DNA of 64,000 bases, from positions 1 to 64,000 of the forward strand of contig NZ_JAQTLY010000001.1 in the NCBI RefSeq assembly GCF_028714655.1, written 5' to 3'. Every line of letters starts with the position of its first letter. The first letter of the stretch is position 1. This document shows, one piece after another, positions 38,997-55,225 of this stretch. The notes beneath the pieces were generated by a model. That model was not told where the DNA came from, did not search any database, and saw nothing but the letters and a program-made list of their open reading frames with translations. The stretch comes from Sulfurimonas sp. Its GTDB lineage: Bacteria > Campylobacterota > Campylobacteria > Campylobacterales > Sulfurimonadaceae. Made by a program: the position numbers and the translations under genes.

Positions 38997-40220
38997 ATGA
39001 ACAGTTCAATAAAAAGTATGGTTTTAATTTCTACTTTGACATACAGCATGACAAGTATGGCGGAAGAAGTTGTGAAGGCAGACCAAAATGAAGCCTCAGC
39101 GATTGGGCAGATTTTTGAGGAGGGTAAAGTTTCAGGAAACATAAGATCTATGTATGCCGGATACAATATAAAAAAAGAAAACGAGAACAATATCTATGCT
39201 ACGGCTCTTGGCGGTTATTTAAAGTATGAGACGGCAGAGTTAAACGGTTTTAGTGCGGCTGCAGCTTTTGCAACATCTCATGATATCGGTTTTGCAACAG
39301 GAGACAAAGGCGTAAAACAAAATGATGAGCTGTCGTCGTCTGATGGAAAATACACCACGCTAAGCGAAGCATATTTAAACTATAAATACGATGATTTTAA
39401 TTTTCGTGCAGGTCGTCAGGTTATTGATACGCCGCTGGCGAACAGTGATGATATTAGAATGATTCAAAATACATTTGAAGCGTATATCGCAACTTATGAA
39501 ATTTCTAACTTTAATTTTATGGCAGGTAAACTGCAAAAGTGGCAAGGTTATGATGCGGGATTGAATGACGGTTGGATTAAAGCGGGGGAAAAGGGAACAT
39601 ACTTCGGCGGGGCAGTATACGCAGATGATATGATGAAAGCAAGCGGTTGGTACTACAACATTACTAAGCTTACTAATGCTGCCTATTTTGATGCAGCTCT
39701 TAAGTATGAGATAAACAGTGATGTGTCAAGTACCGGAGCTGTTCAATATTTAAATGAAAGTGAGATAAGCGGCAGCGGCACAAAAGCAGATATTTACGGA
39801 GTTAGGGCAGAATTGTCGGCTTACGGATTTGCTCTAAGTGCGGCATATAACAAATCTCAAAAGAAAGTCGGCAAAACGAGTTTTAGCGGTTTTGGAGGCG
39901 GAGCGCTTTTTACGAGTATGGATACGATGATTTTGGATAAGATAGTTTCTGACCGTGATGCAAAAGCAATGGTCGGAGGCATAAGCTATGAGATTGACGG
40001 TTTGACTCTCTCTTATGCTTACGGTAATTTTAAGGGTGAAGCAGACAGTCTTGGACAAAAAGCTTATATCGTAGAGCAAGATATCGGTGTCAAATATTGC
40101 ATTATTGAAGATAAGTTTAGCGTTAGTGCTGTTTATGCAGTACAAGCGGATAGAGAGAACTCGGCAAAAACAGATAATGATTGGAGTCGTCTTCAAGTAA
40201 TGGCAGCATATAGTTTTTAA
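38997..40220 (+). CDS. Outer-membrane porin (OprD-like, Campylobacterota type)
   Basis: This is a 407-residue outer-membrane channel with a signal peptide ending near MSMAEE. GKVSGNIRSMYAGYN is the usual opening of this OprD-related porin family. Repeated amphipathic strands follow (AELNGFSAAAAFATSHDIGF, LSEAYLNYKYDDFNFRAGRQVIDTPLANSDD), and the protein ends LQVMAAYSF with C-terminal Phe. The GRQ-DTPLANSDD loop is typical of the family. Fur-like boxes upstream suggest induction in low iron, so the channel may admit an iron compound. The substrate is unknown. Confidence 0.85.
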   Translation: MNSSIKSMVLISTLTYSMTSMAEEVVKADQNEASAIGQIFEEGKVSGNIRSMYAGYNIKKENENNIYATALGGYLKYETAELNGFSAAAAFATSHDIGFATGDKGVKQNDELSSSDGKYTTLSEAYLNYKYDDFNFRAGRQVIDTPLANSDDIRMIQNTFEAYIATYEISNFNFMAGKLQKWQGYDAGLNDGWIKAGEKGTYFGGAVYADDMMKASGWYYNITKLTNAAYFDAALKYEINSDVSSTGAVQYLNESEISGSGTKADIYGVRAELSAYGFALSAAYNKSQKKVGKTSFSGFGGGALFTSMDTMILDKIVSDRDAKAMVGGISYEIDGLTLSYAYGNFKGEADSLGQKAYIVEQDIGVKYCIIEDKFSVSAVYAVQADRENSAKTDNDWSRLQVMAAYSF

Positions 40221-40672: not shown

Positions 40673-41002
40673 GTGAGTGTTTTAGTAATAGGCGGAGATA
40701 AAATTGACGCTATAAAATCAATATTGAGTTATTTTGGGGCATCTAATATAGTTCATTGGAATGCAAGAAAAAAAGCAAGTACATGCAAAAAAATTATACC
40801 TGTCGATATAGAATGTGTAGTTATGTTGACATCTTTTTTAAATCATAATGCTATGAAACATTTTAAGAGCGAAGCCAAAAAGCGTGATTTGCCGGTTATA
40901 TGTTCTAAACACAACGGCAGTTGTTTTTACGATGAATACAAAAAAGTTATGGGCAATGAGTGTATAAACTGCGATGTTTATTCGAGCTGCAATATAAAAT
41001 AG
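40673..41002 (+). CDS. DUF2325 Cys-rich protein
   Basis: This is a 109-residue DUF2325 protein: SVLVIGGDKIDAIKSIL, NIVHWNARKKAST, VVMLTSFLNHNAMKHFKSEAKKRDLPVICSKHNGS. It resembles a small Rossmann-like half domain. It has eight Cys: CKK, C in IECVV, C in VICSK, C in GSCFYD, and a C-terminal ECINCDVYSSC cluster that looks metal- or FeS-binding. It starts with GTG after AAGGGG. Lying between two small unknown proteins behind Fur-like boxes, it may handle iron or FeS clusters; that is an inference. Confidence 0.75.
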   Translation: MSVLVIGGDKIDAIKSILSYFGASNIVHWNARKKASTCKKIIPVDIECVVMLTSFLNHNAMKHFKSEAKKRDLPVICSKHNGSCFYDEYKKVMGNECINCDVYSSCNIK

Positions 41003-41242: not shown

Positions 41243-44200
41243 TTAAAAAACTTTAACTACTCTGTTTAACTCGACAACAGGTGGGTTTGGCAGCTGCGGA
41301 TATGCTTTTTTTACCGCGTCCGTTACCCATTGCGGGTAGATTCTAAAGTTTAGTTTTACGGTAGCCGTTAGCGGATATTTTAGTGTTTTGTCCTTAGGTA
41401 TTTTGTAGGATTCGACTCGTCTCTCTCCTGCGGCAATTCTGGTGTCGCTTAAAAGTTTTTCATATTTCCAAAAAAGAAGTCCTGCGGGTTTACCCTCTTT
41501 GTCTGCAAATACTTTCATAAAAGGTCGTGCATCTTCGCCTAGATTACCGTCGCTTTTTAGTTTTCCGCTCTCAAATACGACTTTTCCGTCGGCATCTTCC
41601 AGCGTTACATCAAGCCATAGTTCCCTAAAGTCTGCAACGCCCGTCGGCAGATGATGTCCTGCCCCGACATTTGTTACTCCGACATCAATTTGAGACTCTT
41701 TGATATCTACATCAAGCTTTGCAGAAGTTTTTAGCAGTTGCAGTGTCTGATCTTCATTTTTTTTATTTTTCAGCCCCGATAAAAAATGATTTGAGCCGGA
41801 AAAATAGTGAACTTTTACATCATCTTTTATTTTGCCGCCATCGGTTGAGAAACCTTTTAAGGGATAGAATTTACCGTTTTGCAGATTTGTCATATGGCAA
41901 TCTATACAGCTTTTATGTTTGTTAGGATTGTCCGGATTGTTAAATGACGATTTTTCCCACTCTTTAAAAGTAGAGACTATCTCGCTTGCGTTACCCGGAC
42001 TAAACTCATCATGACAAGAGGCACAATAAGCGGCGTCTTTATAAACGGGTTTCATATAACTATCTTTATGAGCTTTGGGTTTTGAGTTTATAAATTTTTC
42101 ACTGAGCCACTGTCCTGCTTCTGATTTACTATCTTCAAACGCATACTTTTGGCGCTCGGTTATGTTTAAAGTATAAGATGCGTTTCCGCCCGCGTTTTCA
42201 ACCTTTGTAATCCTATGACAGGCAACGCAAGAGACTCCCTCTTCAAGTTTTGAATTGCCGTGAATTTTCAACTCCTCTATTAGGGTTTTTGCTCCTTTTT
42301 CAAAAAACTTCTCCATTGTATCGGTAGTTTTTTGCAAACCTGTCGTAACGGCACTTGGATTGTGGCAGCCCATGCACCATTTTCTAAACTCTTCACCCTC
42401 TGTTTTGGCTGCTAGATTTTCTAAAACCATATAGTAAGGGTTTGCTCCTGCTAAGTTTTTATGATTTGAATCCGCCCACTGATTAAATATATCAGAGTGG
42501 CATGATTTGCACTTTGCAGAGTTTGTCCAATCTTCTATGTGGTATTTTTCTACATCATCTTCGAGTTTTATCCAAGTAGAGAGATAACGCAAATTCTCTT
42601 TTGAGGTAACATAACGATGCAGATTTTGCATTTTATCTTTTAGCTCTGTGTTCATATTATCCGGGTTTGCCAAAGCTATTTGCGATTTTTTATCGGCTCC
42701 CATTCCGCCTTGCGTATCTCTGGCAATTCTCACATAATCAGCCAAAGGAGTTTTTGATATAAATCCGTTTAGATTGGAATGTCCGATAGTCGCTTTTTTG
42801 GATTTATCAATTTGTGTATCTTTAAATAAAAAGCGATTTGTAAAGTTAAACCCTTCAAAATGACAAGAGTTGCAGCTCATCCAAAAATCTCCGCTCATCG
42901 GAGTTTGGCTGTTAAAATCCGAATTTGCATTGTTAAACAGTCTCTTTCCCTCTCTCATTGCCAATGGCAGAGGATCTTTTTCAACCAAACGGGAAAAAGA
43001 CTCTTTTTGCAGTGTAATCTCTGCAAAAGGGTGACTTCCTCCGCTGTCTAAAAGCGTCATATCAAGAGTAGAAGCGTTTTGAACATATATGTTATTGTTA
43101 TCGGGATGCACTAAAATAGCTTGGGGATTTGTGCCGTTTGGGTAATCTCTAAAAATTTGGGTGGCTTTTGCTCCCGTTCCGCTTATATTCGATTTTGTTC
43201 TATGTCTTTTTATTTTAGAGTTATCATTGCTTCTTTCTAAATTAAAAACCATGATATCTTCGCTTCCCGCCAATGATACAAATGCTTTTTCTCCGTCATT
43301 TGAAAAGGTCAAATCACAAGGGTTTGATACAATCATGGTCTCATTTTTGTTGTTTAGTATATTTATGGATTTAAAAAGGTGTTTTCTTTTTTGCTCCTCT
43401 TCCCTCTCAGAGCCCTTCTCTAACGAGATAATTGAGATTGTAGGGAAAACGGTTGACTGAAATTGAAAAGGGTGGTCAAAATTCCATAAAACATGAACAA
43501 GCCAAGCTTCGCTGCCGTCAGGTTTAATCTCTATGTCATCCAAAAGCCTCGGCGCGCCCTGCGACACAAACTCGTCGCCATCTTGAGTCGAATGCAGAGT
43601 TATAGTTTTTAGTTTTGAGAAACTTTTACTGTCATAAATTGTTACAATGCCGAGCATCGTATGTGTTACTAAAAGTCTTCCGTCATCCGTTAGTGCCATT
43701 CCTCGCGGAGTGTCAAGAGTTTTAATAGTTTTTATAACACTGAAATTTTTATCGTCGATAACTAAAATTTCTTTATCTTCATAAATTGTTACAAAGAAGT
43801 ATCTGTTTTTTTCGTCATAAATTATTGCATGCGGTCTGTTGTGCGTTTTTATCTCTTTAATAATTTTATTCTCTTTGTTTAAAAAATAGACTCTGTTTTT
43901 CATATAGTCGGTTACGCCGTAAATGGACTCATCGCTGTTAAAAGCTATCCTTCTTATATCGCTTCCCAAAACTTTTTCAAATATTTTTTCGCCGCTTTTT
44001 GCGTTGATTTTAGAGACACTGCCGCCGTCTAGGTTTGCGCTGTAAATATATTGTTTGTCTTTGGTCAAATAAAGAGCCGAACTGCTTGTGCTTGAATATG
44101 AGAGTGTCGGAACAAGCAATGTAAAGAGAACTGCTGAAGCTAAAACAGCTTGTCTTTTAGCTCTATGCTTTCTCTTTTTTTGATCTCTTTTAAGATTTAA

Positions 44201-44590
44201 GTATGGAAAGTTGGTGTGATGCCATAAAAAGAAGAGTAGTAGAAATGAGCCGTATAAATGAAGATTGTATGAGTATGTGCCGATTTCATCACCGCCTCTG
44301 TTTCCTATAAAAAACAGATACAACCCGCTGAGAGTTATAAGTAAAAGCACTATTCCTAAAAACATACCGTTCCTATTATTTCTTTTTTTACCGATTATAT
44401 TATCTCTATATTTAAAAATATGAATGTTTACAAAAGGTATAATCAAAAAGACAGAAACGGCGATTGAACCGATAATATGCATGGCTTGCAGGATGGAGTA
44501 ATATCCCCAGTCGATATTAAAAATATCCCATTGAACTATGCCCGTTACAAACATAAGCACAATTGAGAGTTGAATGTAAACTGATTTCAC
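41243..44590 (-). CDS. Membrane-anchored beta-propeller multihaem cytochrome c fusion
   Basis: This 1115-residue protein joins three parts. Residues 1-165 hold about five membrane helices, with His in MHIIG/NIHIF (38, 57) and LHLYG/LWHH (111, 124, 125) placed as in b-type cytochromes. Residues about 165-535 are YVTN-like beta-propeller repeats (YIYSANLDGGSVSKI, PRGMALTDDGRLLVT, AILVHPDNNNIYVQN). From about 535 there are six CXXCH sites at 573, 694, 739, 788, 856 and 895; the last five resemble cytochrome c554 proteins (CKSCHSDIFNQW). A beta-rich tail ends the protein. It probably moves electrons from the quinone pool to a periplasmic acceptor. It lies 161 bp downstream of the 674-residue gene, which has a Fur-like box. 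Acceptor unknown; ferric iron is possible. Confidence 0.8.
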   Translation of the reverse strand: MKSVYIQLSIVLMFVTGIVQWDIFNIDWGYYSILQAMHIIGSIAVSVFLIIPFVNIHIFKYRDNIIGKKRNNRNGMFLGIVLLLITLSGLYLFFIGNRGGDEIGTYSYNLHLYGSFLLLFFLWHHTNFPYLNLKRDQKKRKHRAKRQAVLASAVLFTLLVPTLSYSSTSSSALYLTKDKQYIYSANLDGGSVSKINAKSGEKIFEKVLGSDIRRIAFNSDESIYGVTDYMKNRVYFLNKENKIIKEIKTHNRPHAIIYDEKNRYFFVTIYEDKEILVIDDKNFSVIKTIKTLDTPRGMALTDDGRLLVTHTMLGIVTIYDSKSFSKLKTITLHSTQDGDEFVSQGAPRLLDDIEIKPDGSEAWLVHVLWNFDHPFQFQSTVFPTISIISLEKGSEREEEQKRKHLFKSINILNNKNETMIVSNPCDLTFSNDGEKAFVSLAGSEDIMVFNLERSNDNSKIKRHRTKSNISGTGAKATQIFRDYPNGTNPQAILVHPDNNNIYVQNASTLDMTLLDSGGSHPFAEITLQKESFSRLVEKDPLPLAMREGKRLFNNANSDFNSQTPMSGDFWMSCNSCHFEGFNFTNRFLFKDTQIDKSKKATIGHSNLNGFISKTPLADYVRIARDTQGGMGADKKSQIALANPDNMNTELKDKMQNLHRYVTSKENLRYLSTWIKLEDDVEKYHIEDWTNSAKCKSCHSDIFNQWADSNHKNLAGANPYYMVLENLAAKTEGEEFRKWCMGCHNPSAVTTGLQKTTDTMEKFFEKGAKTLIEELKIHGNSKLEEGVSCVACHRITKVENAGGNASYTLNITERQKYAFEDSKSEAGQWLSEKFINSKPKAHKDSYMKPVYKDAAYCASCHDEFSPGNASEIVSTFKEWEKSSFNNPDNPNKHKSCIDCHMTNLQNGKFYPLKGFSTDGGKIKDDVKVHYFSGSNHFLSGLKNKKNEDQTLQLLKTSAKLDVDIKESQIDVGVTNVGAGHHLPTGVADFRELWLDVTLEDADGKVVFESGKLKSDGNLGEDARPFMKVFADKEGKPAGLLFWKYEKLLSDTRIAAGERRVESYKIPKDKTLKYPLTATVKLNFRIYPQWVTDAVKKAYPQLPNPPVVELNRVVKVF

Positions 44591-44626: not shown

Positions 44627-44748
44627 GAATAATTATTGAATTAGACCCTGAATGACCAAAGGAAATACCCTTGCGGTACAAGTTCAGGGTGGCGAGCAGT
44701 TCGTCATTCCAAGCTTAACTTGGAATCTAGTTTATGATTTAATCAGAG
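44627..44748. repeat. Palindromic intergenic repeat, CCTGAA type with loop insert (copy B2)
   Basis: TAGACCCTGAATGACC...ACAAGTTCAGGGTGGC plus an inverted GTCATTCCAAGCTTAACTTGGAATCTAG unit form a head-to-head pair. The outer flanks CTCTGAATAATTA and TTTAATCAGAG form degenerate terminal inverted repeats. The first unit's loop holds the shared 24-nt segment (44659-44682). Confidence 0.85.
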
Positions 44749-44751
44749 TTT

Positions 44752-46776
44752 TTAATTGGATAATTTAACTTTTCCTGCCATAGTCGGAGCAGTTCCGAAT
44801 TTTCCGCCTGCTTTGTTAATCGGAGGAACATTGTCTTCGTCGTTATTGCTTGTTGTCATTGAAGCTGTTTCATATTCGCCCGAATCAAGTAGCCACTCTG
44901 CGAGTTGAGCACCGTCATTTACGGAATTTCCGTTTATAACCAATTGAAACCACCTTGTAAATCTCTCGGTTAAGTTTTTAAGTTCAAGAACCGGCTTTTT
45001 CTCAAAACCTGTATTCTTTAAATTGCTAATAGCGCTTCTTAACCCACCGCTAACTGCTCCGATAGTATAAGGCGTATACTCTTTTGACGCATCGACATAA
45101 GTACCGATTTTTTTATCATACATATTTTTTTCTATAGAGATCATCAACTCTCTTGCTTCTTCTCTGTATTTGCTGTTTTTGGTCGCCAGATATGCTGCCG
45201 TGAGTCCTCTGATAACCGCAAACTGTGTTCCTAAATCTGCTCCCTCTTTTGAACCGCTCTTTACATTGTAAACGGTTGCATATAAGCCGTTTTTCTCTTT
45301 CGCTTTGCCGATTAGAAAATCAGCCTGAGCTTTAATAAGTTCAAGAGCCTTTTTACCTTGCTCAGTCTCTAAAGATTGTGCACTCTTGCTTGAACCGTAA
45401 CCGACGGGAAGTGCATCTACGGCTCTTTGAAAAATTCTTAGTGCTTCTATGGAGTATGCTGCATCGTAAATTGTAACCGTGCTGCTTTGTTCGCCGTCAA
45501 ATCTGTCAATGAAAGTTCCGGCTTTTTTATCAAAGTGAAGTTTTGAAATATTTTCAAACATTAAATTAGCGATATTTGCAGCAACTGAGAATGCGTCATC
45601 GGATTTAATATCATTTTTTCTGTTGCCGTCGATATTTACTTTTGGAGCGCTTTTAAAAGGTTTTCCGTCAAACACCGCTAAAAATGAAGGATTTTGATTT
45701 TTATTGGAAGTTCTTTGATCTGAAAATGCATAAAATTCAGATATCGGCCAAAGTATCTGCCAAGTATCTCTTAAACTGGAATGTCCCTCTTTAACTTTTA
45801 AAGAAGCAATAGATTTGGTACCGTTTGCATTTTCTTCTTCCACTGCTATACTGTTTGCAAACCATATAGGCTTGCTTGCATCGTAAGATGGATCAAATTT
45901 TGCACCTAAATTTTTACCGTCAAAGCCTAGTTTCTCTTGCATATATAAAATACATTCCCATGCAAGTTCTGTTAAAATCATCCCGTTTATGCCGTCTTTG
46001 CTTGAAACTCCCAGAGCATGTTTTCCATCAGAATCCATAGACGAGCTTGTAGCTTTTACCTCTTTATCAGTTTCTATTACATGCATTCCGCCTAGAAAGT
46101 CTTGCGCCCACATTATATCTTTTAAGAGTGCTGCACCAAATGAAGCAGGATTGAATGTTTTATCCATTTCCGATTCAATCCAAGAGAGCGTTTTATAATC
46201 TCTTAAATAAGCAGGTATTGAAATTTTCACTACACTCTCTTTGCCGCGCTTGAAGACGGTTATCTCGTCTTTATTTACAATTGTCATATCAATTTCTTGT
46301 GCAAATTCAGGGATTCCAGAGGTGTATGGCAGTGCGGTCGGATGCATATTTAACGGTATTATTTCCGGGTCATTGCCTGTTGCTTTTGCAAACTCTATAA
46401 ATCTTTTTGCCAAAGAAGCCATATCCCCGCCTCTTGAAGCGTTTAAAAGACCGTTTACCAGATGCGGTCCCATTTTTGACTGATAATTTAGAGCATACAT
46501 CGCTTCTTCAGAGTATTCATAACTCTCAATTCCTGCCGTATAATCAAACTCTGTCGGTTTATTGATTGCATTTGGATTTAGTGTGTCTAAATCAAGCCCG
46601 AGTGATTCTACAAGGGGTTCTCCGGACAACTCAAACTCAGTATAGGCAAACATTGCCCCTGCCGTATAAAATCTTTTATCCAAAACCTCTGCTTTTGTAT
46701 TAGAAAACGGCTTTGAAGCATATAATGATGTTATAGCCAAAGAAGCAATCAGTGACAATTTTACTATCTTATTCAT
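44752..46776 (-). CDS. Large periplasmic protein of unknown function, probably iron-regulated
   Basis: This is a 674-residue protein with a clear signal peptide (MNKIVKLSLIASLAITSLYAS). The mature part is rich in helices with repeated aromatic pairs (YDAAYSIEALRIFQRAVDALP, RDTWQILWPISEFYAFSDQR, GLTAAYLATKNSKYREEAREL), suggesting an alpha/alpha toroid or helical-repeat fold. It has almost no Cys and no haem motif. I do not recognise the family. A near-perfect Fur core is 70 bp upstream. The multihaem fusion gene follows in the same direction, so the two may work together: one binding a ligand or surface, the other carrying electrons. Confidence 0.65.
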   Translation of the reverse strand: MNKIVKLSLIASLAITSLYASKPFSNTKAEVLDKRFYTAGAMFAYTEFELSGEPLVESLGLDLDTLNPNAINKPTEFDYTAGIESYEYSEEAMYALNYQSKMGPHLVNGLLNASRGGDMASLAKRFIEFAKATGNDPEIIPLNMHPTALPYTSGIPEFAQEIDMTIVNKDEITVFKRGKESVVKISIPAYLRDYKTLSWIESEMDKTFNPASFGAALLKDIMWAQDFLGGMHVIETDKEVKATSSSMDSDGKHALGVSSKDGINGMILTELAWECILYMQEKLGFDGKNLGAKFDPSYDASKPIWFANSIAVEEENANGTKSIASLKVKEGHSSLRDTWQILWPISEFYAFSDQRTSNKNQNPSFLAVFDGKPFKSAPKVNIDGNRKNDIKSDDAFSVAANIANLMFENISKLHFDKKAGTFIDRFDGEQSSTVTIYDAAYSIEALRIFQRAVDALPVGYGSSKSAQSLETEQGKKALELIKAQADFLIGKAKEKNGLYATVYNVKSGSKEGADLGTQFAVIRGLTAAYLATKNSKYREEARELMISIEKNMYDKKIGTYVDASKEYTPYTIGAVSGGLRSAISNLKNTGFEKKPVLELKNLTERFTRWFQLVINGNSVNDGAQLAEWLLDSGEYETASMTTSNNDEDNVPPINKAGGKFGTAPTMAGKVKLSN

Positions 46777-46798: not shown

Positions 46799-46861
46799 AA
46801 AACGATTATCAAAATTATAAATAAAGAAGCTTAATGTATGTTTAAAATGATAATTATTATC
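46799..46861 (-). promoter_or_regulatory. Fur box upstream of the 674-residue protein gene
   Basis: AATGATAATTATTATC (46846-46861) matches the Fur core AATGATAATCATTATC at 15 of 16 positions. A second, weaker site AACGATTATCAAAATTAT lies at about 46801-46818, next to the start. This is the best Fur match in the window. Confidence 0.75.
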
Positions 46862-47030: not shown

Positions 47031-48407
47031 TTAGTTTTTCAATAAATACAGTGTTTTTTCGCCTACAAAACGCCCTTTATAAATCTCATAAGATGCTTCT
47101 TTTGGTTTCTGAGCCGTGATGATGTAAACCGTGTCTTTTTCATTAAGGTAGTTTGCGCTGTCATGGTAATAGTTGTCTGCTACTCTGTGATTATAAACGG
47201 TTCTTAGTATCTCAATGCCCCTGTTCGCTACTATTATTCTATCTGTGAGGGCTATATTTTGGGCGATTTGTTCAATGGGAGAAATCTTTTCATCATATTT
47301 TAAAATATGAAATATATTAAAAGAGAGTATCAAAAAAAGTAAGATATTTGCTTTTTTTAAATATGTTGCAAGAAAAATATTGGCTATAAAAACTAAAGGT
47401 ATTATATGTCTTAGGCTGTCGGGATTTTGGGCAAAGAGTATCCAGCAAAAGTAGAAAACAAAAAGTATGTACAAAAGCATGAACTTTTTTTCTTGTTTAA
47501 AAGGTAGAAATAGCAAAAATACATATGGTATATTTATAACTGAAAAGATATTGTCAAACCAAGAAAGTTCGCTGTTTTGCCCTCGTCCCCAGAGTGAGAA
47601 ATGTCCCTCAACAAATCTCACACCCTCATAAAAATAGAGCATGCCGTTGTTTATAAATATAAAGAGCAAAAACAAAACGGAGGTTGAAAAAAACCAAACC
47701 AAGACCGGTTTTAGGGAATCTTTTTTAAAGATGTAAAGATATATAAATACCGCAATAAATACAATAAAATAGGATGGTCTTGAAAAAAATGAGATGGCAA
47801 AAATAATACCGCTTAGTCTTTGTTTTTTAAGTAAATTTTTTGCAAAACTAGACCCTGAATCAAGTTCAGGGTGACAGTTGGTGAGTTCAGGGTGACAGTT
47901 GGTGAATTCATGGTTAGAGAAGCTCAGAAATCTCGTCATTCCAAACTTGATTTGGAATCTAGTTTTGAGGTTATGCAAGAAGTTTAGCTCAAGAAAATAG
48001 AGTCCTAAAAAGAAAAAGAGCAAACCAACACTTTCGCTTAACATACACAATGAGAGGTTCATTAGATAAGGTGTAGTAATAGAGAGTACGAAGACTATAA
48101 AAGCCGTTTTTTCGTTTTGAAGTTTTTTTGTATATAAAAAGAGAACAAGCGGCAGCAGTATCGCACTAAGAGCAGTGAGAATAAAGAGAGAGTATTTGGC
48201 ATCATCTATAAAAAAATTGATGATTTTGCCAAAAATAACGACAGAAGGGTACCCCGGAAAATGAGGAGAAAAATCTATAACGCTAAAGTTTTTTATACCG
48301 TTTGCCAAAAAAAGCGAATCGTCATTAAAATATGAAGCAGGGTAGGTAAAAATAAAAACGGCATAAACAAAAGTACTTATGCCGATGATTATTTTATAGT
48401 TGCTCAT
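47031..48407 (-). CDS. Multi-pass membrane glycosyltransferase (GT39/PMT_2-like) with in-frame repeat insert
   Basis: This is a 458-residue protein with about ten membrane helices, resembling polyprenyl-phosphate-sugar-dependent glycosyltransferases. The early loop YFNDDSLFLANGI (about 26-38) holds the acidic residues expected for the catalytic site, and HFPGYPS follows. A C-terminal globular part carries ALTDRIIVANRGIEILRT. Residues about 148-188, including the CHPELTNCHPELDSGSS stretch, are not glycosyltransferase sequence: they are encoded by a 123-bp palindromic repeat inserted in frame in a loop between helices. Substrate and acceptor are unknown. It is the fourth gene after FTR1. Confidence 0.7.
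   Translation of the reverse strand: MSNYKIIIGISTFVYAVFIFTYPASYFNDDSLFLANGIKNFSVIDFSPHFPGYPSVVIFGKIINFFIDDAKYSLFILTALSAILLPLVLFLYTKKLQNEKTAFIVFVLSITTPYLMNLSLCMLSESVGLLFFFLGLYFLELNFLHNLKTRFQIKFGMTRFLSFSNHEFTNCHPELTNCHPELDSGSSFAKNLLKKQRLSGIIFAISFFSRPSYFIVFIAVFIYLYIFKKDSLKPVLVWFFSTSVLFLLFIFINNGMLYFYEGVRFVEGHFSLWGRGQNSELSWFDNIFSVINIPYVFLLFLPFKQEKKFMLLYILFVFYFCWILFAQNPDSLRHIIPLVFIANIFLATYLKKANILLFLILSFNIFHILKYDEKISPIEQIAQNIALTDRIIVANRGIEILRTVYNHRVADNYYHDSANYLNEKDTVYIITAQKPKEASYEIYKGRFVGEKTLYLLKN
47844..47966. repeat. 123-bp palindromic repeat inserted in a coding region (copy B3)
   Basis: The insert runs from AAAACTAGA to TCTAGTTTT, which are exact inverted ends. Inside are CCCTGAA-TCAAG-TTCAGGG and ATTCCAAA-TCAAG-TTTGGAAT hairpins (the second read on the minus strand), plus a 21-bp tandem duplication (GTTCAGGGTGACAGTTGGTGA twice). 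Its length is 41 codons with no stop in the host frame. Confidence 0.88.
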
Positions 48408-48419
48408 TTTGCGCCAAAA

Positions 48420-48974
48420 CTAGAGTTCTGCAAGGACTCTATATATAATCTGTTGATTTTTTTTGTACTCTTGCTCATCGGCTGCCTTTGCTCCGACTCC
48501 AAAAAGACCGGGGTTTCCGATAGAGTCCGCACATTTTTTTATGGCTGCCTTAAGCGTTTCATTTTTTTCTTTATCTAAACTGACCGATAAAATTTTGTAA
48601 AACTTATCGGCTTTTGCCAGCATAACTTTTGCCACATTAAACTCTTTTATATTTTTAAAACCGCCATCGATTCTTCTTTGAATCTCGCAAGCAACGGAAA
48701 TGTCAAGCCATCTGAGTATCTGCTTTTTGTCATGTTTTAAAATCGATGTTTTTAAACCCTCAAAGAGCAGAGTGTTAAACTCGTCATTTAAGTATCGATA
48801 AGTCTGCTCATACTCTTTAAACACCGTCTCCGCCTTTTTAAAGTCATCACCGTTTACGGCTCTTACGATTGCTTCTTTTGCATCAATCGTCGGCTCTTTG
48901 CCTGCTGCTGCATAAGAGTAGGCATTTAGAGCAGAAGCTATAAAAGCCGCAATAAATAACACTAAAAGTTTCAT
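48420..48974 (-). CDS. Periplasmic helical protein next to FTR1, function unknown
   Basis: This is a 184-residue protein with a signal peptide (MKLLVLFIAAFIASALNAYS). The mature chain is nearly all helix and charged: AKEAIVRAVNGDDFKKAETVFKEYEQTYRYL, LLFEGLKTSILKHDKKQILRWLDISVACEIQRRIDGGF. Conserved-looking Glu, His and Arg residues could bind iron. No family is recognised. Bacterial FTR1 permeases often have a periplasmic iron-binding helper (P19, EfeO or a fused helical domain), and none other is seen here, so it is a candidate partner. It lies between the flavoprotein and the glycosyltransferase, 12 bp from the latter. Confidence 0.6.
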   Translation of the reverse strand: MKLLVLFIAAFIASALNAYSYAAAGKEPTIDAKEAIVRAVNGDDFKKAETVFKEYEQTYRYLNDEFNTLLFEGLKTSILKHDKKQILRWLDISVACEIQRRIDGGFKNIKEFNVAKVMLAKADKFYKILSVSLDKEKNETLKAAIKKCADSIGNPGLFGVGAKAADEQEYKKNQQIIYRVLAEL

Positions 48975-49109: not shown

Positions 49110-50510
49110 TCAGGCGATGCTTTTTGTCTCTATAACCGTTTTTTCATTTCTGTGATTGTAGATTTTCTCTTTTGAAATAGACGAATCTCCGAGAATCTTC
49201 CCTGCCGCCATAAGCCCCGTCTCCATAGCGGTATCAAGAAATATGTATCTAAATGTTCCCTGTCTCCCCGCCATTACAAGATTGTTAAATCTATTTAGGT
49301 ATTTGATAGCGTCATCCCTTTTTATGTCGTAATTTATATCCATTAATGTATAAGCATGCTCCGTACTAAAAGAGAAGCTATCTATTATCTTTTCTTCAAT
49401 ATCAAACCTCAGTTTTTTTAAGTCCTGTTTTACGATTTTTAAAAGCTCTTCCTTGTCCATATTCCAGATTTTGTCATTTTTGTTGCATGGAATTTCAAGC
49501 ATTATGGAACTTTTGCTTTTTGGAGACATAAACTCTGATCTTCTTTTTGGCTCTTGTATCCTTGTAGGCAAAAGCTCATAATCGCTTACATACTGCCAAG
49601 TGTGAGGCGAAAAATCTTCTATATCTAAACCGATACACAAAAATCTAAGGCTTCTGAATTTTAAACCGCTCTCATAACCGAGTTTTAAAGACATTTCGTT
49701 AAGCGGCATAGTTGAGATGATGTCGTGGGCTTTAAAAGTGTGATTTTGCGTATGAACGGCTGTTATGGAGTTGTTCGTATATTCAAAGCTCGTCACTTCA
49801 CAATCAAGAAATATTTTTCCGCCCAAAGCCTCAAACCTTTGTGCCATCCTCTTTGGAAGTTCCCCAAATCCGTATTTGGGATATCTATAACTTTTTGCAT
49901 AAGTTCTCACTGTTTTTTTATTTTTAAACAGCATTTTTTTTGCAACATCTTTTAAATCAAGCAGTGAAATCCTCTGTCCTGCCCAGTCGGCACTCAAATC
50001 TTTCGGTTCTATTCCCCAAAGTTTTTTTGTATATGGGGCAAAAAAATTCTTATACAGAGTTGCTCCGAATCTTGATGTTATCCATGTCTCAAAACTTTTA
50101 TCATCAGGCTTTACTAATTTTAACAATATTTTCAAGGTATCAAAAAGTGCGCCGAAAAGAAGTTTTAAAGGAGCCGTTTTTAGAAGATTTTTCAAATTTA
50201 GCGGATACTCGTAAACTCTGTTTTGGTGAAGTATGACGGAGCTTCTGTTTGCAATTAAAAGATTATCGCCTAAAATCTCTTCCACAAAGGCAAGAAGAGC
50301 CTCATTGTTTGTAATAAATCTGTGTCCCCCGTAGTCAAATCTATATTTGTCATCCCCCGTGTTTAAAACTTCAGTTCTGCATTGTCCGCCGACACTTGAC
50401 TCTTTTTCTAAAAGTATTACGCTCTTTTTCTCTTCCAAAAGTTTTATACCCGCTATCAATCCGGCAACTCCGCCTCCGATAATCAAAACATCGCTATTTT
50501 GCATAGGCAT
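49110..50510 (-). CDS. FAD-dependent oxidoreductase (protoporphyrinogen oxidase / UDP-galactopyranose mutase-like)
   Basis: This 466-residue flavoprotein has the FAD-binding start DVLIIGGGVAGLIAGIKLLEE, the GGQCRTEV motif near 45 and a C-terminal NLVMAGRQGTFRYIFLDTAMETG. The central SRFGATLYKNFFAPYTKKLWG and LSADWAGQRI blocks are typical of a PPOX/UGM-like subgroup often found beside polysaccharide genes. The substrate is unknown. I start it at the ATG at 50510, with GGAAAAG upstream, although an ATG at 50504 is equally possible; the longer frame upstream reads FTR1 in the wrong frame. Either way it begins inside the last codons of the FTR1 gene, so translation is coupled. Confidence 0.75.
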   Translation of the reverse strand: MPMQNSDVLIIGGGVAGLIAGIKLLEEKKSVILLEKESSVGGQCRTEVLNTGDDKYRFDYGGHRFITNNEALLAFVEEILGDNLLIANRSSVILHQNRVYEYPLNLKNLLKTAPLKLLFGALFDTLKILLKLVKPDDKSFETWITSRFGATLYKNFFAPYTKKLWGIEPKDLSADWAGQRISLLDLKDVAKKMLFKNKKTVRTYAKSYRYPKYGFGELPKRMAQRFEALGGKIFLDCEVTSFEYTNNSITAVHTQNHTFKAHDIISTMPLNEMSLKLGYESGLKFRSLRFLCIGLDIEDFSPHTWQYVSDYELLPTRIQEPKRRSEFMSPKSKSSIMLEIPCNKNDKIWNMDKEELLKIVKQDLKKLRFDIEEKIIDSFSFSTEHAYTLMDINYDIKRDDAIKYLNRFNNLVMAGRQGTFRYIFLDTAMETGLMAAGKILGDSSISKEKIYNHRNEKTVIETKSIA

Positions 50511-51309
50511 AAGTTCTTTTCCATAATATAAGAGCACTTGACATATAGAGAATCCAAGAGAGCAGATGCAGCAGCGAGGGAGAGGAGTTGTACCCAAAGA
50601 GCGCTCTTAAAAAAGTTCCGATTAAACCTTTGTCGTCCAAGATATGCGATATATCGTAAACGCTTGACATAAGGACAGGAGCCAATCCGCTTGCCTGCAT
50701 CATAGAGACGGCACTTCCGAAAAGCCCGCCGGCGATTATCAAAATCAGAAGCGAGGTGTATTTGAAAAATGCTTTTATAGGGATATTCTTTGCGCCTTTC
50801 ATAAGAGCATAAACCAAAATCACGGATACCATAATCCCCAAAGAAGCACCGATAAGTCCCTCCTCAGCGCTTATATTTTCTCCTATGCTAAGTGAGGAGA
50901 AAAAGAGTACGCTCTCAAAACCTTCTCTTAAAACCGCCAAAAATGCTAAAAACACCATACCGGCTATATTGCCCGCCGTTACCAAACGATCCAGATTTTC
51001 TTCTATCTCGCCTTTTATCTGTTTTGATTGGTTTGACATCCAAAAAACCATATAAGATAAAACAGCCGTTGCAAAAAGCAGAATAAAAATCATTAAATAG
51101 TGCTGATAAAGTTCATTTTCCATTCCGTAAATCATGACTTGAAAAATATATGCGATGATGAGCGATACTGCAATCCCGATAATTACGCCCAAATAGATAT
51201 ATTTGTTGTATCTTTTTACTTGAAGACGGCTTAAATAGGAGAGAATAATACCTACTATTAAAAAAGCCTCCAACCCTTCTCTCAGCGTTATTAAAAAACT
51301 TGCTAACAT
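50494..51309 (-). CDS. FTR1-family high-affinity iron permease
   Basis: This is a 271-residue inner-membrane iron permease with about seven helices. The two iron-handling REGxE motifs are present: LREGLEAFL near residues 9-17 and LREGFESVLF near 127-136. It is the short form without the fused periplasmic domain. A Fur-like box lies 23-38 bp upstream. It is the first gene of an FTR1-flavoprotein-184aa-glycosyltransferase unit. In C. jejuni FTR1 works with P19; no P19 is seen here. Confidence 0.92.
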   Translation of the reverse strand: MLASFLITLREGLEAFLIVGIILSYLSRLQVKRYNKYIYLGVIIGIAVSLIIAYIFQVMIYGMENELYQHYLMIFILLFATAVLSYMVFWMSNQSKQIKGEIEENLDRLVTAGNIAGMVFLAFLAVLREGFESVLFFSSLSIGENISAEEGLIGASLGIMVSVILVYALMKGAKNIPIKAFFKYTSLLILIIAGGLFGSAVSMMQASGLAPVLMSSVYDISHILDDKGLIGTFLRALFGYNSSPSLLHLLSWILYMSSALILWKRTYAYAK

Positions 51310-51331: not shown

Positions 51332-51347
51332 AATAATCGTTATCATT
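51332..51347 (-). promoter_or_regulatory. Fur-box-like site upstream of FTR1
   Basis: Read on the minus strand, AATGATAACGATTATT matches 13 of 16 positions of the Fur core and sits 23 bp before the FTR1 ATG. Confidence 0.65.
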
Positions 51348-51399
51348 ATAATTTATTAAAAATAAAAAGTTTCTTAAATTTATACACAAATTGAAAAAC

Positions 51400-51545
51400 T
51401 ATTAGACTTCTTGCATAACCTAACAAAGTATATTCCAAATCGAGTTTGGAATGACGAGGTAATCAAAGTTTGGAATTACGATATTTTTGAGTTTTCGTTA
51501 TCCTGAACTTGATTCAGGATCTTTTGTTTGCAAGAAGTCTATTAA
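51400..51545. repeat. Palindromic intergenic repeat, CCTGAA type (copy B4)
   Basis: ATTCCAAATCGAGTTTGGAATGACG and TATCCTGAACTTGATTCAGGATC hairpins lie between exact outer inverted repeats TAGACTTCTTGCA and TGCAAGAAGTCTA. The interval 51310-51618 otherwise holds only the Fur-like box and the feoA leader. Confidence 0.85.
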
Positions 51546-51618: not shown

Positions 51619-51873
51619 ATGTCGGATAAAATAGATAATAATAAAACAAAAAAATTAAGCGATTGTAAAAAAGCGTGTATAGTAAAAATTACCAAGCTAA
51701 ATGCCGATTCGGAGCTAAGACAACGATTGATATCTTTTGGAATTATGAAAGATGCGGTTGTTGAAGTGCTTGAACTTGCTCCCGCAAAAAGTACGATAGA
51801 GATAAAGGTCGGTAAAATGAGAATAGCTCTTCGAGCTCAAGAAGCTGAACTGATAGAGGTTGTAAAAATATGA
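51619..51873 (+). CDS. feoA: Ferrous iron transport protein A
   Basis: FeoA is the small SH3-like cytoplasmic partner of the FeoB channel. The 84 residues include ACIVKITKLNADSELRQRLISFGIMKDAVVEVLELAP and a terminal IALRAQEAELIEV, the usual FeoA pattern. I prefer the ATG at 51619 (M-S-D-K-I) with AGAGAA upstream to a TTG seven codons earlier. The stop overlaps the feoB start (ATGA). No obvious Fur box lies directly upstream. Confidence 0.9.
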   Translation: MSDKIDNNKTKKLSDCKKACIVKITKLNADSELRQRLISFGIMKDAVVEVLELAPAKSTIEIKVGKMRIALRAQEAELIEVVKI

Positions 51874-54011
51874 ATAAAAATATAAAAGTTTGTCCGATAA
51901 CGGCAAAGCATATAAAAGTAGCATTGGTTGGGCAACCCAATGTCGGAAAGAGTATGCTTATAAACTCTATATCAAATGCACACTTGCAAGTAGGAAATTT
52001 TACGGGTGTAACTGTTGAGAAGAGTGAAGTATTATTTGATTATAAAGATTATCATTTTACCGTAGTCGACTTGCCGGGAACTTATGCTTTGAGCGATTAC
52101 TCCATCGAAGAGAGAGTAACTACGCAGTATCTCTTGGCTGAAGATTATGATTTGATTATAAATGTAGTAGATTCTACAAATCTGGAAAAAAACCTTCAAC
52201 TGACTTCTGAATTGATGAGTGTGGGCAAAAAGATGTTATTAGCCCTTAATATGAGCGATGAAGCCAAGAAAGAGGGCATAGAGATAGATAATAATCAAAT
52301 GTCTTTGCTTCTTGGTTTTTCATGCGTAAAAGTTTCCGCCGCAACAAAAGAAGGCATAGGCGAACTAATAGAAGCGATAATAAAAGAGTATGAAAATGAA
52401 ACTATGGAGCATAAGCTCATCTTTAGTGAAGCGGTTGAAGAGGAGGTATCTATAATAGTCGACTATTTAACCAAACACAAATACGAGGATGAAAATTCAT
52501 ACAGAAATATAGCGATAAATCTTCTAAAAAATAGTAAAAAAACATATGCAAAGCTACATGATGACCCTATTTGGACGGAGTTGCAGCCGATTCTTATCGA
52601 GGCTTCCAAACATATTGAGCTGCATCACGATTGCGATGACATAAAAGAGGCTTTTGCTTCAGAATATGCTTCATTTAACAGAGGAGTAGTTGCCGAGGTT
52701 GTAAAACAAAGCAGAGAGGCTGAGAAAAAAACACTTACCGATAAAATAGATTCTGTTTTGATACATCAACTATTGGGTATACCGATATTTTTATTTTTTA
52801 TGTGGGCGCTTTTTCAGCTTACATTTAAAATCGGTTCTATTCCGATGGAGTGGATTGATGCTTTTTTCTCTTGGTTTGGCGAAACGGTAGGCGCTACTAT
52901 ATCTAACGATGATGTTCGCTCGCTGGTAGTCGACGGAGTTATATCGGGCGTCGGTGCGGTTGTTCTTTTTGTTCCAAATATTGCCATACTCTTTGTCGGT
53001 ATCGCTCTTTTGGAGAGTACGGGCTATATGTCAAGAGTCGCGTTTTTGCTTGACGGTTTTTTTCATAAATTTGGACTTCACGGTCAGTCGTTTATACCCC
53101 TTGTAACGGGTTTTGGCTGTTCTATTCCCGCTTATATGAGTGCGAGGATTTTAAAAAATGACCGTGACAGACTTTTGACTCTCTTTATAATCGGGTTTAT
53201 GAGTTGCGGAGCAAGACTTCCCGTGTATGTTCTCTTCGCGGGTGCATTTTTTTCAGAGAGTATGGCAGGGAATGTTCTTTTTGCTATCTATATAACCGGT
53301 GCTATGCTTGGACTTTTTGCCGCAAAAATACTTAAGCTGACTGCTTTTAAAGGTATAGACGAGCCGTTTGTTATGGAGATGCCAAAATATAGACTTCCCT
53401 CAGTTAAGCTTATTTGGCATACAGTTGTTACAAAAACTTTGATGTATTTGAAAAAAGCCGGTACTTTTATTGCGGCGGCTTCAATGCTTATATGGTTTTT
53501 AAGCAATTATCCCCATAATTTAAAACTCAAAGAAGAGTATGGCAAAAAAATTGAAAATGCTATAAATGAAGATGAAAAAAAAGAGCTTGCAAACAGACTC
53601 TCAGAAGCTAATTTGGAACAGAGTTATCTGGGCAAAATCGGCAAGTTTTCAGAGCCGATTTTTGCACCGCTTGGATTTGACTGGAAAATGAGCGTGGCTC
53701 TTCAAACCGGACTTGCCGCAAAAGAGGTAGTTGTTTCAACACTTGGTGTTTTATATGCTTTGGGCAAGGATATAAATGAAGAAAATAACAGTTCTTTAAA
53801 AGAGATAATATCTAAAAATATTCCGTTTCCCTCAGCTGTTGCATTTATAGTGGTAGTAATGATATATCTTCCGTGTTTGGCGGCTTCGGTCGTATTTACG
53901 CGTGAAGCCGGCGGTATAAAATACTTCTTTTATCTTCTGGCATTAACATCCGCAGTAGCATATACGCTTGCATTTATAGCGTTTAATGTTACATCTATGT
54001 TTTATAGCTAG
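51870..54011 (+). CDS. feoB: Ferrous iron transport protein B
   Basis: FeoB is the GTPase-linked inner-membrane Fe2+ importer. In its 713 residues, the G domain has GQPNVGKS (about 22-29), the G2 Thr in NFTGVTVEK, G3 DLPGTY and G4 as NMSD (usually NxxD). A membrane domain of about ten helices follows, with GFGCSIPAYMSARI and SCGARLPVYVLF, the two Gate-like motifs with Cys. A C-terminal half repeats the pattern (AAKEVVVSTLGVLYALG). It is coupled to feoA and adjoins the Fur-linked FTR1 unit, so two iron importers are side by side. Confidence 0.97.
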   Translation: MNKNIKVCPITAKHIKVALVGQPNVGKSMLINSISNAHLQVGNFTGVTVEKSEVLFDYKDYHFTVVDLPGTYALSDYSIEERVTTQYLLAEDYDLIINVVDSTNLEKNLQLTSELMSVGKKMLLALNMSDEAKKEGIEIDNNQMSLLLGFSCVKVSAATKEGIGELIEAIIKEYENETMEHKLIFSEAVEEEVSIIVDYLTKHKYEDENSYRNIAINLLKNSKKTYAKLHDDPIWTELQPILIEASKHIELHHDCDDIKEAFASEYASFNRGVVAEVVKQSREAEKKTLTDKIDSVLIHQLLGIPIFLFFMWALFQLTFKIGSIPMEWIDAFFSWFGETVGATISNDDVRSLVVDGVISGVGAVVLFVPNIAILFVGIALLESTGYMSRVAFLLDGFFHKFGLHGQSFIPLVTGFGCSIPAYMSARILKNDRDRLLTLFIIGFMSCGARLPVYVLFAGAFFSESMAGNVLFAIYITGAMLGLFAAKILKLTAFKGIDEPFVMEMPKYRLPSVKLIWHTVVTKTLMYLKKAGTFIAAASMLIWFLSNYPHNLKLKEEYGKKIENAINEDEKKELANRLSEANLEQSYLGKIGKFSEPIFAPLGFDWKMSVALQTGLAAKEVVVSTLGVLYALGKDINEENNSSLKEIISKNIPFPSAVAFIVVVMIYLPCLAASVVFTREAGGIKYFFYLLALTSAVAYTLAFIAFNVTSMFYS

Positions 54012-54536: not shown

Positions 54537-55199
54537 ATGAAAAAAATATTAATGATTGAAGATGACTTGGAGTTGGCGGAGATATTAACAGAATATCTTG
54601 GGCAGTTTAAGTTTGAGGTTGTCACAGAGGACGACCCTTTTAAAGCGGTAAGTATATTAAAGTTAGAACCGTTCGACTTGGTTATTTTAGATTTAACCTT
54701 GCCGGGTATGGATGGTTTAGAGGTTTGCGAAGCAATTCGCGAGAGACAGGATATCCCTATCATCATCTCATCGGCTAGAAGCGATGTTACCGATAAGGTA
54801 AAGGCACTTGAACTTGGGGCTGACGATTATATTCCAAAGCCGTATGACCCGAGGGAGCTTGAGGCTAGAATCCACTCTGTTTTAAGACGATACGAAGCAA
54901 AATCGCAACAAAAAGAGGAATCAAAGAGCGATTTTAAATGTGATACTTCGTCTATGATGATTACATACAAGGGTAGAAACATCGACCTTACAAATGCAGA
55001 GTTTGGAATTTTGTCATATATGATTGCGAAGCAGGGACTTGTCGTTTCAAGAGAAGATTTGATTCATAATGTAAATGCTATAAATGAAGACTCTTCAAAC
55101 AAGAGTATTGATGTTATGGTCGGCAGAATTAGAAATAAACTCGGAGATAAATCTCTTATCGAATCCGTTAGAGGTGTGGGTTATAAACTTCTTAAATAA
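54537..55199 (+). CDS. OmpR-family response regulator (ArsR-like, two-component)
   Basis: This is a 220-residue response regulator. The receiver domain (1-115) has DDLEL near the start, the phospho-Asp in LVILDLTLPG (about 52) and the Lys in YIPKPYDPRE. The winged-helix DNA-binding domain (about 128-220) includes LTNAEFGILSYMIAKQGLVVSREDL and RGVGYKLLK. It is followed after 26 bp by a sensor kinase resembling ArsS of Helicobacter and Campylobacter, so the pair is called ArsRS-like. The target genes may include mltF just downstream. Confidence 0.92.
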   Translation: MKKILMIEDDLELAEILTEYLGQFKFEVVTEDDPFKAVSILKLEPFDLVILDLTLPGMDGLEVCEAIRERQDIPIIISSARSDVTDKVKALELGADDYIPKPYDPRELEARIHSVLRRYEAKSQQKEESKSDFKCDTSSMMITYKGRNIDLTNAEFGILSYMIAKQGLVVSREDLIHNVNAINEDSSNKSIDVMVGRIRNKLGDKSLIESVRGVGYKLLK

Positions 55200-55225
55200 T
55201 TGTCATTGTTTTAGGAGATAAACCA

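What the first reader, a model, noticed from the sequence alone, without database searches (positions are those of the whole stretch)
41243..44590. Single-chain b-haem anchor, beta-propeller and hexahaem cytochrome c fusion
Seen: about five membrane helices with His pairs placed as haem ligands, then propeller repeats, then six CXXCH sites (573, 694, 739, 788, 856, 895) in 1115 residues. Known: propeller-plus-cytochrome and c554-like proteins exist separately. Inferred: one polypeptide could take electrons from quinol to a periplasmic acceptor. Next to a Fur-boxed gene, and with FTR1 and FeoAB nearby, a ferric reductase for reductive iron uptake is a testable idea; another reductase is equally possible.
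Basis: partly seen in the sequence, partly recalled or inferred. Interest (0 to 1): 0.8.

Follow-up and report, generated by a model that had tools for sequence, protein, structure and literature searches.

The report
Haem-chain protein tied to iron uptake
A bacterial membrane protein that chains two probable b-haems, a beta-propeller and six c-type haems is encoded in an iron-regulated gene cluster with an iron importer, in several unrelated bacterial groups, and probably moves electrons between the cell's respiratory quinones and iron outside the membrane during iron uptake.

Summary
Window 41243-44590 (minus strand) encodes a 1115-aa protein with CXXCH at exactly the six stated residues: a four-helix membrane anchor with four His, a propeller, a mono-haem domain and a penta-haem domain. 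The four anchor His are invariant in 28 long homologues from Campylobacterota, Alpha- and Gammaproteobacteria, and in short homologues. In gammaproteobacteria the anchor is a separate upstream gene.

The iron link is strong. In the window's genus (135 genomes) the long form, a neighbouring periplasmic protein of no known family ('d1') and FTR1 occur in the same 7 genomes; FTR1 occurs in only one other. In several relatives the gene abuts FTR1. Fur-like boxes precede d1 and FTR1 and recur across orthologues. Some relatives without FTR1 have other iron genes nearby.

A paralogue without the propeller sits in a denitrification island beside a MauG/MbnH-type haem protein; it looks derived by propeller loss.

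Best reading: the quinone-linked haem partner of a Fur-regulated iron-uptake system, analogous but not homologous to EfeB/EfeO with FTR1. Ferric reduction is favoured; Fe(II) oxidation is not excluded. A signal-peptide-like segment means the chain may be cut in vivo.

The parts
41243..44590 (-). d0: fusion protein, 1115 aa (membrane anchor, propeller, mono-haem, penta-haem)
44189..44590 (-). Residues 1-134: four-helix membrane anchor with invariant H38, H57, H111, H125 (two b-haems inferred)
44090..44149 (-). Residues 148-167: signal-peptide-like hydrophobic segment at the point where gammaproteobacterial split genes separate
42983..44080 (-). Residues 171-536: YVTN-type beta-propeller with invariant H310, H366, H373
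42575..42973 (-). Residues 540-672: mono-haem domain (C573NSCH), homologous to the first haem domain of propeller-dihaem (MauG/CCP-like) proteins
41246..42574 (-). Residues 673-1115: penta-haem cytochrome domain with C-terminal beta domain (c552/5ze8-like)
44752..46776 (-). d1: conserved partner, 674 aa, signal-like start, (alpha/alpha) toroid by model, no named family
46843..46861 (.). Fur-like box upstream of d1, best in the window (3 mismatches to the 19-bp consensus)
47031..48407 (-). d3: PMT_2-like membrane protein (weak match), accessory
48420..48974 (-). d4: 184-aa protein with signal-like start; relative found beside FTR1 in an imelysin/DHOR cluster of another genome
49110..50597 (-). 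d2: PRK07208-type FAD oxidoreductase (start codon uncertain), accessory
50494..51309 (-). d5: FTR1-family iron permease (EfeU/FTR1)
51332..51350 (.). Fur-like box upstream of FTR1 (15/19), conserved in position in orthologues
51870..54011 (+). FeoB ferrous iron transporter, divergent from FTR1
40673..41002 (+). DUF2325 protein; present in all 7 long-form genomes of the genus (not always adjacent)
38997..40220 (+). Opr-type porin; orthologues lie directly upstream of d1 in L039 and L041

Best explanation
The protein is the membrane-anchored haem partner of a Fur-regulated iron-uptake system. Shown: domain order, invariant haem motifs and membrane His, conserved linkage and co-occurrence with FTR1 and d1, conserved Fur-like boxes. 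Inferred: quinol is oxidised at a four-helix anchor with two b-haems; electrons pass through the penta-haem domain to the mono-haem beside the propeller, which presents bound Fe(III) complexes at an invariant His site; reduced iron is handed, perhaps with the help of d1, to FTR1, or to another importer in lineages without FTR1. It would work like a bacterial counterpart of reductive iron assimilation driven by the quinone pool. Separate confidences: component of iron acquisition about 0.8; electron flow outward (reductase) about 0.5. The score below is for the whole mechanism.
For: Invariant anchor His in long, split and short forms. Exact co-occurrence with d1 and near-exact with FTR1 in 135 genomes of the genus; four d1-positive genomes in other genera of the order all have FTR1. 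Gene abuts FTR1 in several loci. Fur-like boxes at d1/FTR1 in 14 of 17 cases against 17 of 179 other genes. Other iron genes near the long form in relatives: FecCD-type importers, an SBP/ABC importer with a 16/19 box, a ferritin-like protein, Fur and FeoB. The anchor/penta-haem module replaces the second haem domain of a propeller-dihaem relative, as expected for an electron-supply module.
Against: FTR1 is missing in 14 of 30 long-form genomes reached through loci. FTR1 permeases are thought to carry Fe(III) made in situ (PMC11966278, PMC2631029), which fits an oxidase better than a reductase. No iron binding, expression or activity data. Iron-gene neighbours outside the FTR1 loci were not tested against a background rate.
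Confidence: 0.48

Rival explanations
1. Ferroxidase direction: the propeller/mono-haem site oxidises Fe(II) next to FTR1 so that Fe(III) is made in situ, and the electrons run inward through the penta-haem and b-haems into the quinone pool. It would do for FTR1 what Fet3p does in yeast or the proposed oxidases do in FtrABCD.
For: FTR1 is described as needing a coupled Fe(II) oxidase, whose identity in bacterial FtrABCD is unknown (PMC11966278; PMC2631029). Some long-form loci without FTR1 carry an SBP/ABC importer or a cupredoxin-type protein.
Against: Low-potential quinones (menaquinone in Campylobacterota, from general knowledge) are poor acceptors from Fe(II) unless Fe(III) is tightly bound. 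Multihaem proteins with quinone-linked membrane anchors usually carry electrons outward (general knowledge).
Confidence: 0.28
2. Quinol peroxidase or detoxifying enzyme: electrons from quinol reduce peroxide at the MauG/CCP-like mono-haem, and the protein protects iron-starved or iron-loading cells rather than handling iron itself.
For: The mono-haem domain is related to the first haem domain of MauG/CCP-like proteins. The short paralogue is encoded with a MauG/MbnH-type protein. DUF2325, whose Campylobacter member is PerR-regulated and next to katA (PMC9426514), occurs in all long-form genomes. EfeB-type partners of FTR1 are peroxidases.
Against: The second haem domain of the MauG/CCP architecture is missing, and the invariant propeller His site is unexplained by a peroxidase role.
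Confidence: 0.13
3. The substrate is not free iron: another metal (for example copper) or a carbohydrate- or organic-bound compound handled with d1, d2 and d3, the iron genes being neighbours because the product supports iron nutrition.
For: d1 has a toroid fold whose nearest, weak structural matches are sugar epimerases and glycosidases. d3 is weakly PMT_2-like and d2 matches amine-oxidase and UDP-galactopyranose-mutase profiles. A cupredoxin-type protein stands beside d0 in the four genomes without d1.
Against: Fold matches are weak (TM at most 0.36) and show no function. d2/d3 are missing from many long-form loci. FTR1 and Fur-like boxes point to iron.
Confidence: 0.09

Closest known systems
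EfeUOB and imelysin/DHOR (DUF1111)-FTR1 iron-uptake systems
   Same: FTR1 permease, a periplasmic helical protein and a periplasmic haem redox protein encoded together with Fur-type control; some versions lack the permease; the one other FTR1 cluster of the genus (G019) is of this type and shares d4 and DUF2325 relatives.
   Different: No imelysin and no DHOR protein in the window's genome. The haem partner is a quinone-anchored multihaem fusion and the helical partner is d1.
FtrABCD and P19-FTR1 systems
   Same: FTR1 permease with periplasmic redox partners whose exact job is unsettled.
   Different: No FtrA/FtrB/P19-type or polyferredoxin gene found among the cluster proteins scanned.
Propeller-dihaem (MauG/CCP-like) proteins; hydrazine synthase beta/gamma
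   Same: Propeller followed by a MauG/CCP-like first haem domain; propeller fold close to hydrazine synthase beta (Z 35.1).
   Different: The second haem domain is replaced by a penta-haem module and a membrane b-type anchor is added; hydrazine synthase models score far below cut-off.
Penta-haem cytochrome c552 of Thermochromatium tepidum (5ze8)
   Same: C-terminal region: five CXXCH and matching fold.
   Different: 5ze8 is a free-standing protein; the function of the fused domain cannot be read from it.
Fre-type (FRD) ferric reductase with FTR1 in yeast
   Same: Idea of a b-haem electron donor acting together with an FTR1 permease.
   Different: No FAD/NAD(P)H domain in d0; electrons are inferred to come from quinol through c-haems; no homology claimed.

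Membership tests
EfeUOB / imelysin-DHOR-FTR1 system | FTR1-family permease in the cluster | tested here: met
   PF03239 and EfeU models match window 50494-51309
EfeUOB / imelysin-DHOR-FTR1 system | Imelysin/EfeO (PF09375) partner | tested here: not met
   No PF09375 match in the window's genome G000
EfeUOB / imelysin-DHOR-FTR1 system | DHOR/DUF1111 (PF06537) haem partner | tested here: not met
   No PF06537 match in G000; DyP-type EfeB was not tested
FtrABCD | FtrA/FtrB (P19, cupredoxin) and FtrD polyferredoxin in the operon | tested here: not met
   No such Pfam family among the cluster proteins scanned; the rest of the genome was not searched
MauG / cytochrome c peroxidase | Two haem domains, each with CXXCH | tested here: not met
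   Only the first haem domain is present in d0; the Anoxybacillus relative has both
Penta-haem cytochrome c552 (5ze8) | Five CXXCH in a matching fold | tested here: met
   phmmer 3.4e-07; Foldseek E 8.7e-14; five CXXCH in residues 694-899
ExtKL (NF040886) | Curated score of 250 bits | tested here: not met
   54.9 bits
Cytochrome b561-like anchors (Ni_hydr_CYTB / DUF4405) | Four-helix bundle with bis-His haem ligands and a Pfam match | tested here: inconclusive
   Helices and invariant His present, but Pfam matches are weak (best 4.5e-05, in 4 of 27) and the PDB profile search found nothing
NrfH-type quinol dehydrogenases | TIGR03153 score of 134.2 bits; single-helix anchor | tested here: not met
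   18.1 bits; the anchor has four helices
Hydrazine synthase beta | NF052340 score of 560 bits | tested here: not met
   43.1 bits; only the propeller fold is shared
Fre-type ferric reductase (FRD) | FAD/NAD(P)H-binding domain in the same chain | tested here: not met
   No such Pfam domain in d0
Iron redox activity (reductase or oxidase) | Electron exchange between quinone and iron | not testable with these tools
   Needs biochemistry

The most novel reading that the evidence does not exclude
A previously undescribed class of bacterial iron-uptake system, found in several bacterial classes and probably spread by gene transfer, in which a quinone-linked chain of two b-haems and six c-haems, meeting a propeller metal site, provides the redox step for FTR1 and other importers, with d1 as a new kind of periplasmic iron protein.
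Probability: 0.5. Interest if true: 0.85.

Novelty: new variant of a known kind. Interest (0 to 1): 0.7.

Why it matters
How bacterial FTR1-type importers obtain their redox step is unsettled: PMC11966278 states that the ferrous oxidase of FtrABCD is unknown, and PMC3143127 that the functions of EfeO and EfeB are unknown. This system offers a candidate whose electron path can be read from its sequence, with an anchor that is fused in some lineages and split in others, an invariant propeller His site, and a conserved partner (d1) with no family name. If right, respiratory-quinone electrons would be used for nutrient iron uptake and not only for metal respiration.

Tried and rejected
Chance or assembly artefact: rejected, since the same architecture occurs in three classes and as split genes. 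Part of a denitrification or other respiratory cluster: true of the short paralogue only. Geobacter ExtKL: score far below cut-off. Lactonase-type nitrous-oxide reductase: 21.7 against 700 bits, dropped. Mutual exclusion of d0/d1 with imelysin/DHOR: no overlap (7 versus 12 of 135 genomes), but zero overlap is expected about half the time by chance, so it is not used as evidence. Universal FTR1 dependence: rejected, FTR1 is in only 16 of 30 long-form genomes reached through loci. DUF2325 as a strict iron marker: rejected, it also occurs in 10 other genomes of the genus, and its Campylobacter member is next to catalase. PDB profile search with the anchor alignment: no match up to E 10. Literature searches for FTR1 with multihaem or propeller proteins found no description, but only open-licence papers are held. 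Haem placement and distances in the models could not be measured (no coordinates supplied).

Full report
Observation. The ORF at 41243-44590 is real and lies on the minus strand: 1115 aa, GTG start, an in-frame stop just upstream. CXXCH occur at exactly the six stated residues. AlphaFold2 with 35 sequences (mean pLDDT 80) gives four membrane helices (3-18, 28-63, 69-95, 102-134), a propeller (171-536), a small mono-haem domain and a helical multihaem region with a C-terminal beta domain. Structure comparison finds hydrazine synthase beta (5c2v_B, Z 35.1, rmsd 2.5, 308 aligned) and a YVTN propeller (1l0q) for the propeller, and the penta-haem cytochrome c552 5ze8 for the C-terminal part (Foldseek E 8.7e-14; phmmer 3.4e-07). 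A shared propeller fold shows no function.

Two architectures. In the window's genus 7 of 135 genomes carry the long form. Most of the 54 genomes with a match carry a short form of about 600 aa in which the anchor is joined directly to the penta-haem domain, and every long-form genome also has a short form. The own short paralogue (L036:8224-10026) overlaps by 4 bp an upstream haem protein of the MauG/MbnH family and lies in an island with a cytochrome cd1 gene and a cytochrome c/oxidase pair of NO-reductase type. In a tree of the penta-haem domain, rooted with proteobacterial long forms, all short forms make one clade (support 0.92) nested among campylobacterotal long forms. So the short form probably arose by loss of the propeller and works with a separate haem partner; this depends on the rooting, and some nodes are weak.

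Distribution. The genome-contig scan found long forms at 41-49% identity in Alphaproteobacteria (Pseudovibrio, Terasakiella, Kiloniella, Shimia, Aurantimonas) and Gammaproteobacteria (Bermanella, Oleispira, Saccharospirillum, Pokkaliibacter, Motiliproteus), and at higher identity in Arcobacter, Aliarcobacter, Sulfurospirillum and Sulfurimonas. In seven gammaproteobacterial loci the anchor is a separate gene just upstream, so the fusion is genuine and the two parts belong together. Only 7 of 397 genomes drawn across the phylum have d1, a patchy spread that suggests horizontal transfer.

Anchor. Across 27 anchors (long, split and short) with 31% mean column identity, only ten columns are invariant: G17 W28 H38 H57 G89 L92 G96 G100 H111 H125. 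From the helix order, H38 and H111 should lie on one side of the membrane and H57 and H125 on the other, as expected for two bis-His b-haems; this is inferred. Pfam shows only weak b561-type resemblance. The hydrophobic segment after the four helices usually has a basic lead and small residues at its end, with an AxA motif in 11 of 29 sequences, mostly alphaproteobacterial, and it lies where the free-standing gammaproteobacterial gene begins. It may act as an internal signal peptide, so the mature protein could be two chains.

Propeller and mono-haem. H310, H366 and H373 are invariant in all 28 aligned homologues, the last two inside a very conserved stretch around residues 363-383. A propeller-dihaem lipoprotein on an Anoxybacillus plasmid aligns over residues 170-698 at 31% identity, keeps H310 and H366 but not H373, and is encoded next to a d1 homologue with a DUF2325 gene close by. 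So the core pair is probably d1 plus propeller/first-haem domain, and the anchor and penta-haem are an electron module in place of the second haem domain.

Iron link. (i) Co-occurrence: d1 is in exactly the 7 long-form genomes of 135, and FTR1 in those 7 plus one (Fisher p about 7e-12 and 6e-11, not corrected for ancestry). Four d1-positive genomes in other genera of the order all have FTR1. (ii) Gene order: d0 lies directly against FTR1 in L039-L041 and in L066, L067 and L084, and is on the same strand as FTR1 in the window. (iii) Regulation: Fur-like boxes of at least 14/19 occur within 150 bp upstream of 14 of 17 d1/FTR1 genes against 17 of 179 other genes in the same campylobacterotal loci (Fisher 1.6e-10); the window's best box is upstream of d1. 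(iv) Other iron genes near the long form in relatives: a FecCD-type importer with its binding protein in L067, L074 and L082 (L074 has no FTR1), with a TonB-dependent receptor in L067; an SBP/permease/ATPase importer with a 16/19 box in L078, L080 and L083; a ferritin-like protein in L068; Fur and FeoB in L057. (v) The one other FTR1 genome of the genus (G019) carries FTR1 with imelysin, a DHOR dihaem protein, a Fur-family regulator, a relative of d4 (31%, E 9e-21) and DUF2325. That is the known imelysin/DUF1111 type (PMC3143127), and it shares accessory genes with the window cluster. Limits: FTR1 is absent in 14 of 30 long-form genomes reached through loci, and item (iv) has no formal background test.

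d1. The 674-aa neighbour has no Pfam or NCBIfam family above cut-off and begins with a signal-like stretch. Its model (pLDDT 86) is an (alpha/alpha) toroid with only weak matches to sugar epimerases and glycosidases (TM at most 0.36 on the query). Four alphaproteobacterial genomes without d1 (L073, L074, L075, L124) have a plastocyanin/azurin-type protein beside d0 instead.

Mechanism. The favoured model is quinol to b-haems to penta-haem to mono-haem/propeller to Fe(III), with iron passed to FTR1 or another importer. The opposite direction (Fe(II) oxidation feeding FTR1, electrons to quinone) is the main rival, because FTR1 is thought to carry Fe(III) formed in situ (PMC11966278; PMC2631029). 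Nothing computed here decides the direction. Redox roles that help iron uptake have been proposed for partners of P19-FTR1 systems (PMC8238504).

Membership. The cluster works like EfeUOB and imelysin/DHOR systems (permease, periplasmic helical protein, periplasmic haem protein) but is not one: imelysin and DHOR are absent from the genome. The fusion is not a complete MauG/CCP protein, not ExtKL, not NrfH and not an FRD-type ferric reductase. No description was found in the open-licence library, which is incomplete; hence 'new variant of a known kind' and not a stronger claim.

Noticed in passing
L036:7034-10026 (own genome, contig C6): Propeller-less short paralogue overlaps by 4 bp an upstream MauG/MbnH-family haem protein, in an island with cytochrome cd1 and other denitrification-type genes; possibly a quinol-linked partner of that haem enzyme.
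   Followed up: partly
L056:10001-13345: The closest orthologue (88%, Sulfurimonas sp. BM502 MAG) is split into two ORFs, a broken gene or an assembly error.
   Followed up: no
L127:659-2950 and L133:9989-12133: Sulfuricurvum variants of 715-764 aa with six CXXCH, without the propeller as far as length shows, next to another multihaem gene.
   Followed up: no
window 40673-41002: DUF2325 gene beside d0; a DUF2325 gene also stands near the d1/propeller pair on an Anoxybacillus plasmid (L144:5843-6139) and near FTR1 in G019 (L147:810-1151). The Campylobacter member (Cj1384) is PerR-regulated and of unknown function.
   Followed up: partly
window 44678-44691, 47852-47873, 51500-51520: Short palindrome-like repeat (ACCCTGAACTTG-type) recurs between or within genes of the cluster, perhaps a dispersed intergenic element or terminator.
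   Followed up: partly
L145:8932-10932: A solitary d1 homologue (52%) on a mobilizable Aeromonas plasmid, close to insertion sequences and glgC and without d0 nearby.
   Followed up: no
genus survey: Imelysin and DHOR proteins occur together in the same 12 of 135 genomes, none of which has the long form.
   Followed up: yes
window 54537-56500: A response-regulator-like ORF and a sensor-kinase-like ORF lie just downstream of FeoB, with homologues near FeoB in L063.
   Followed up: no
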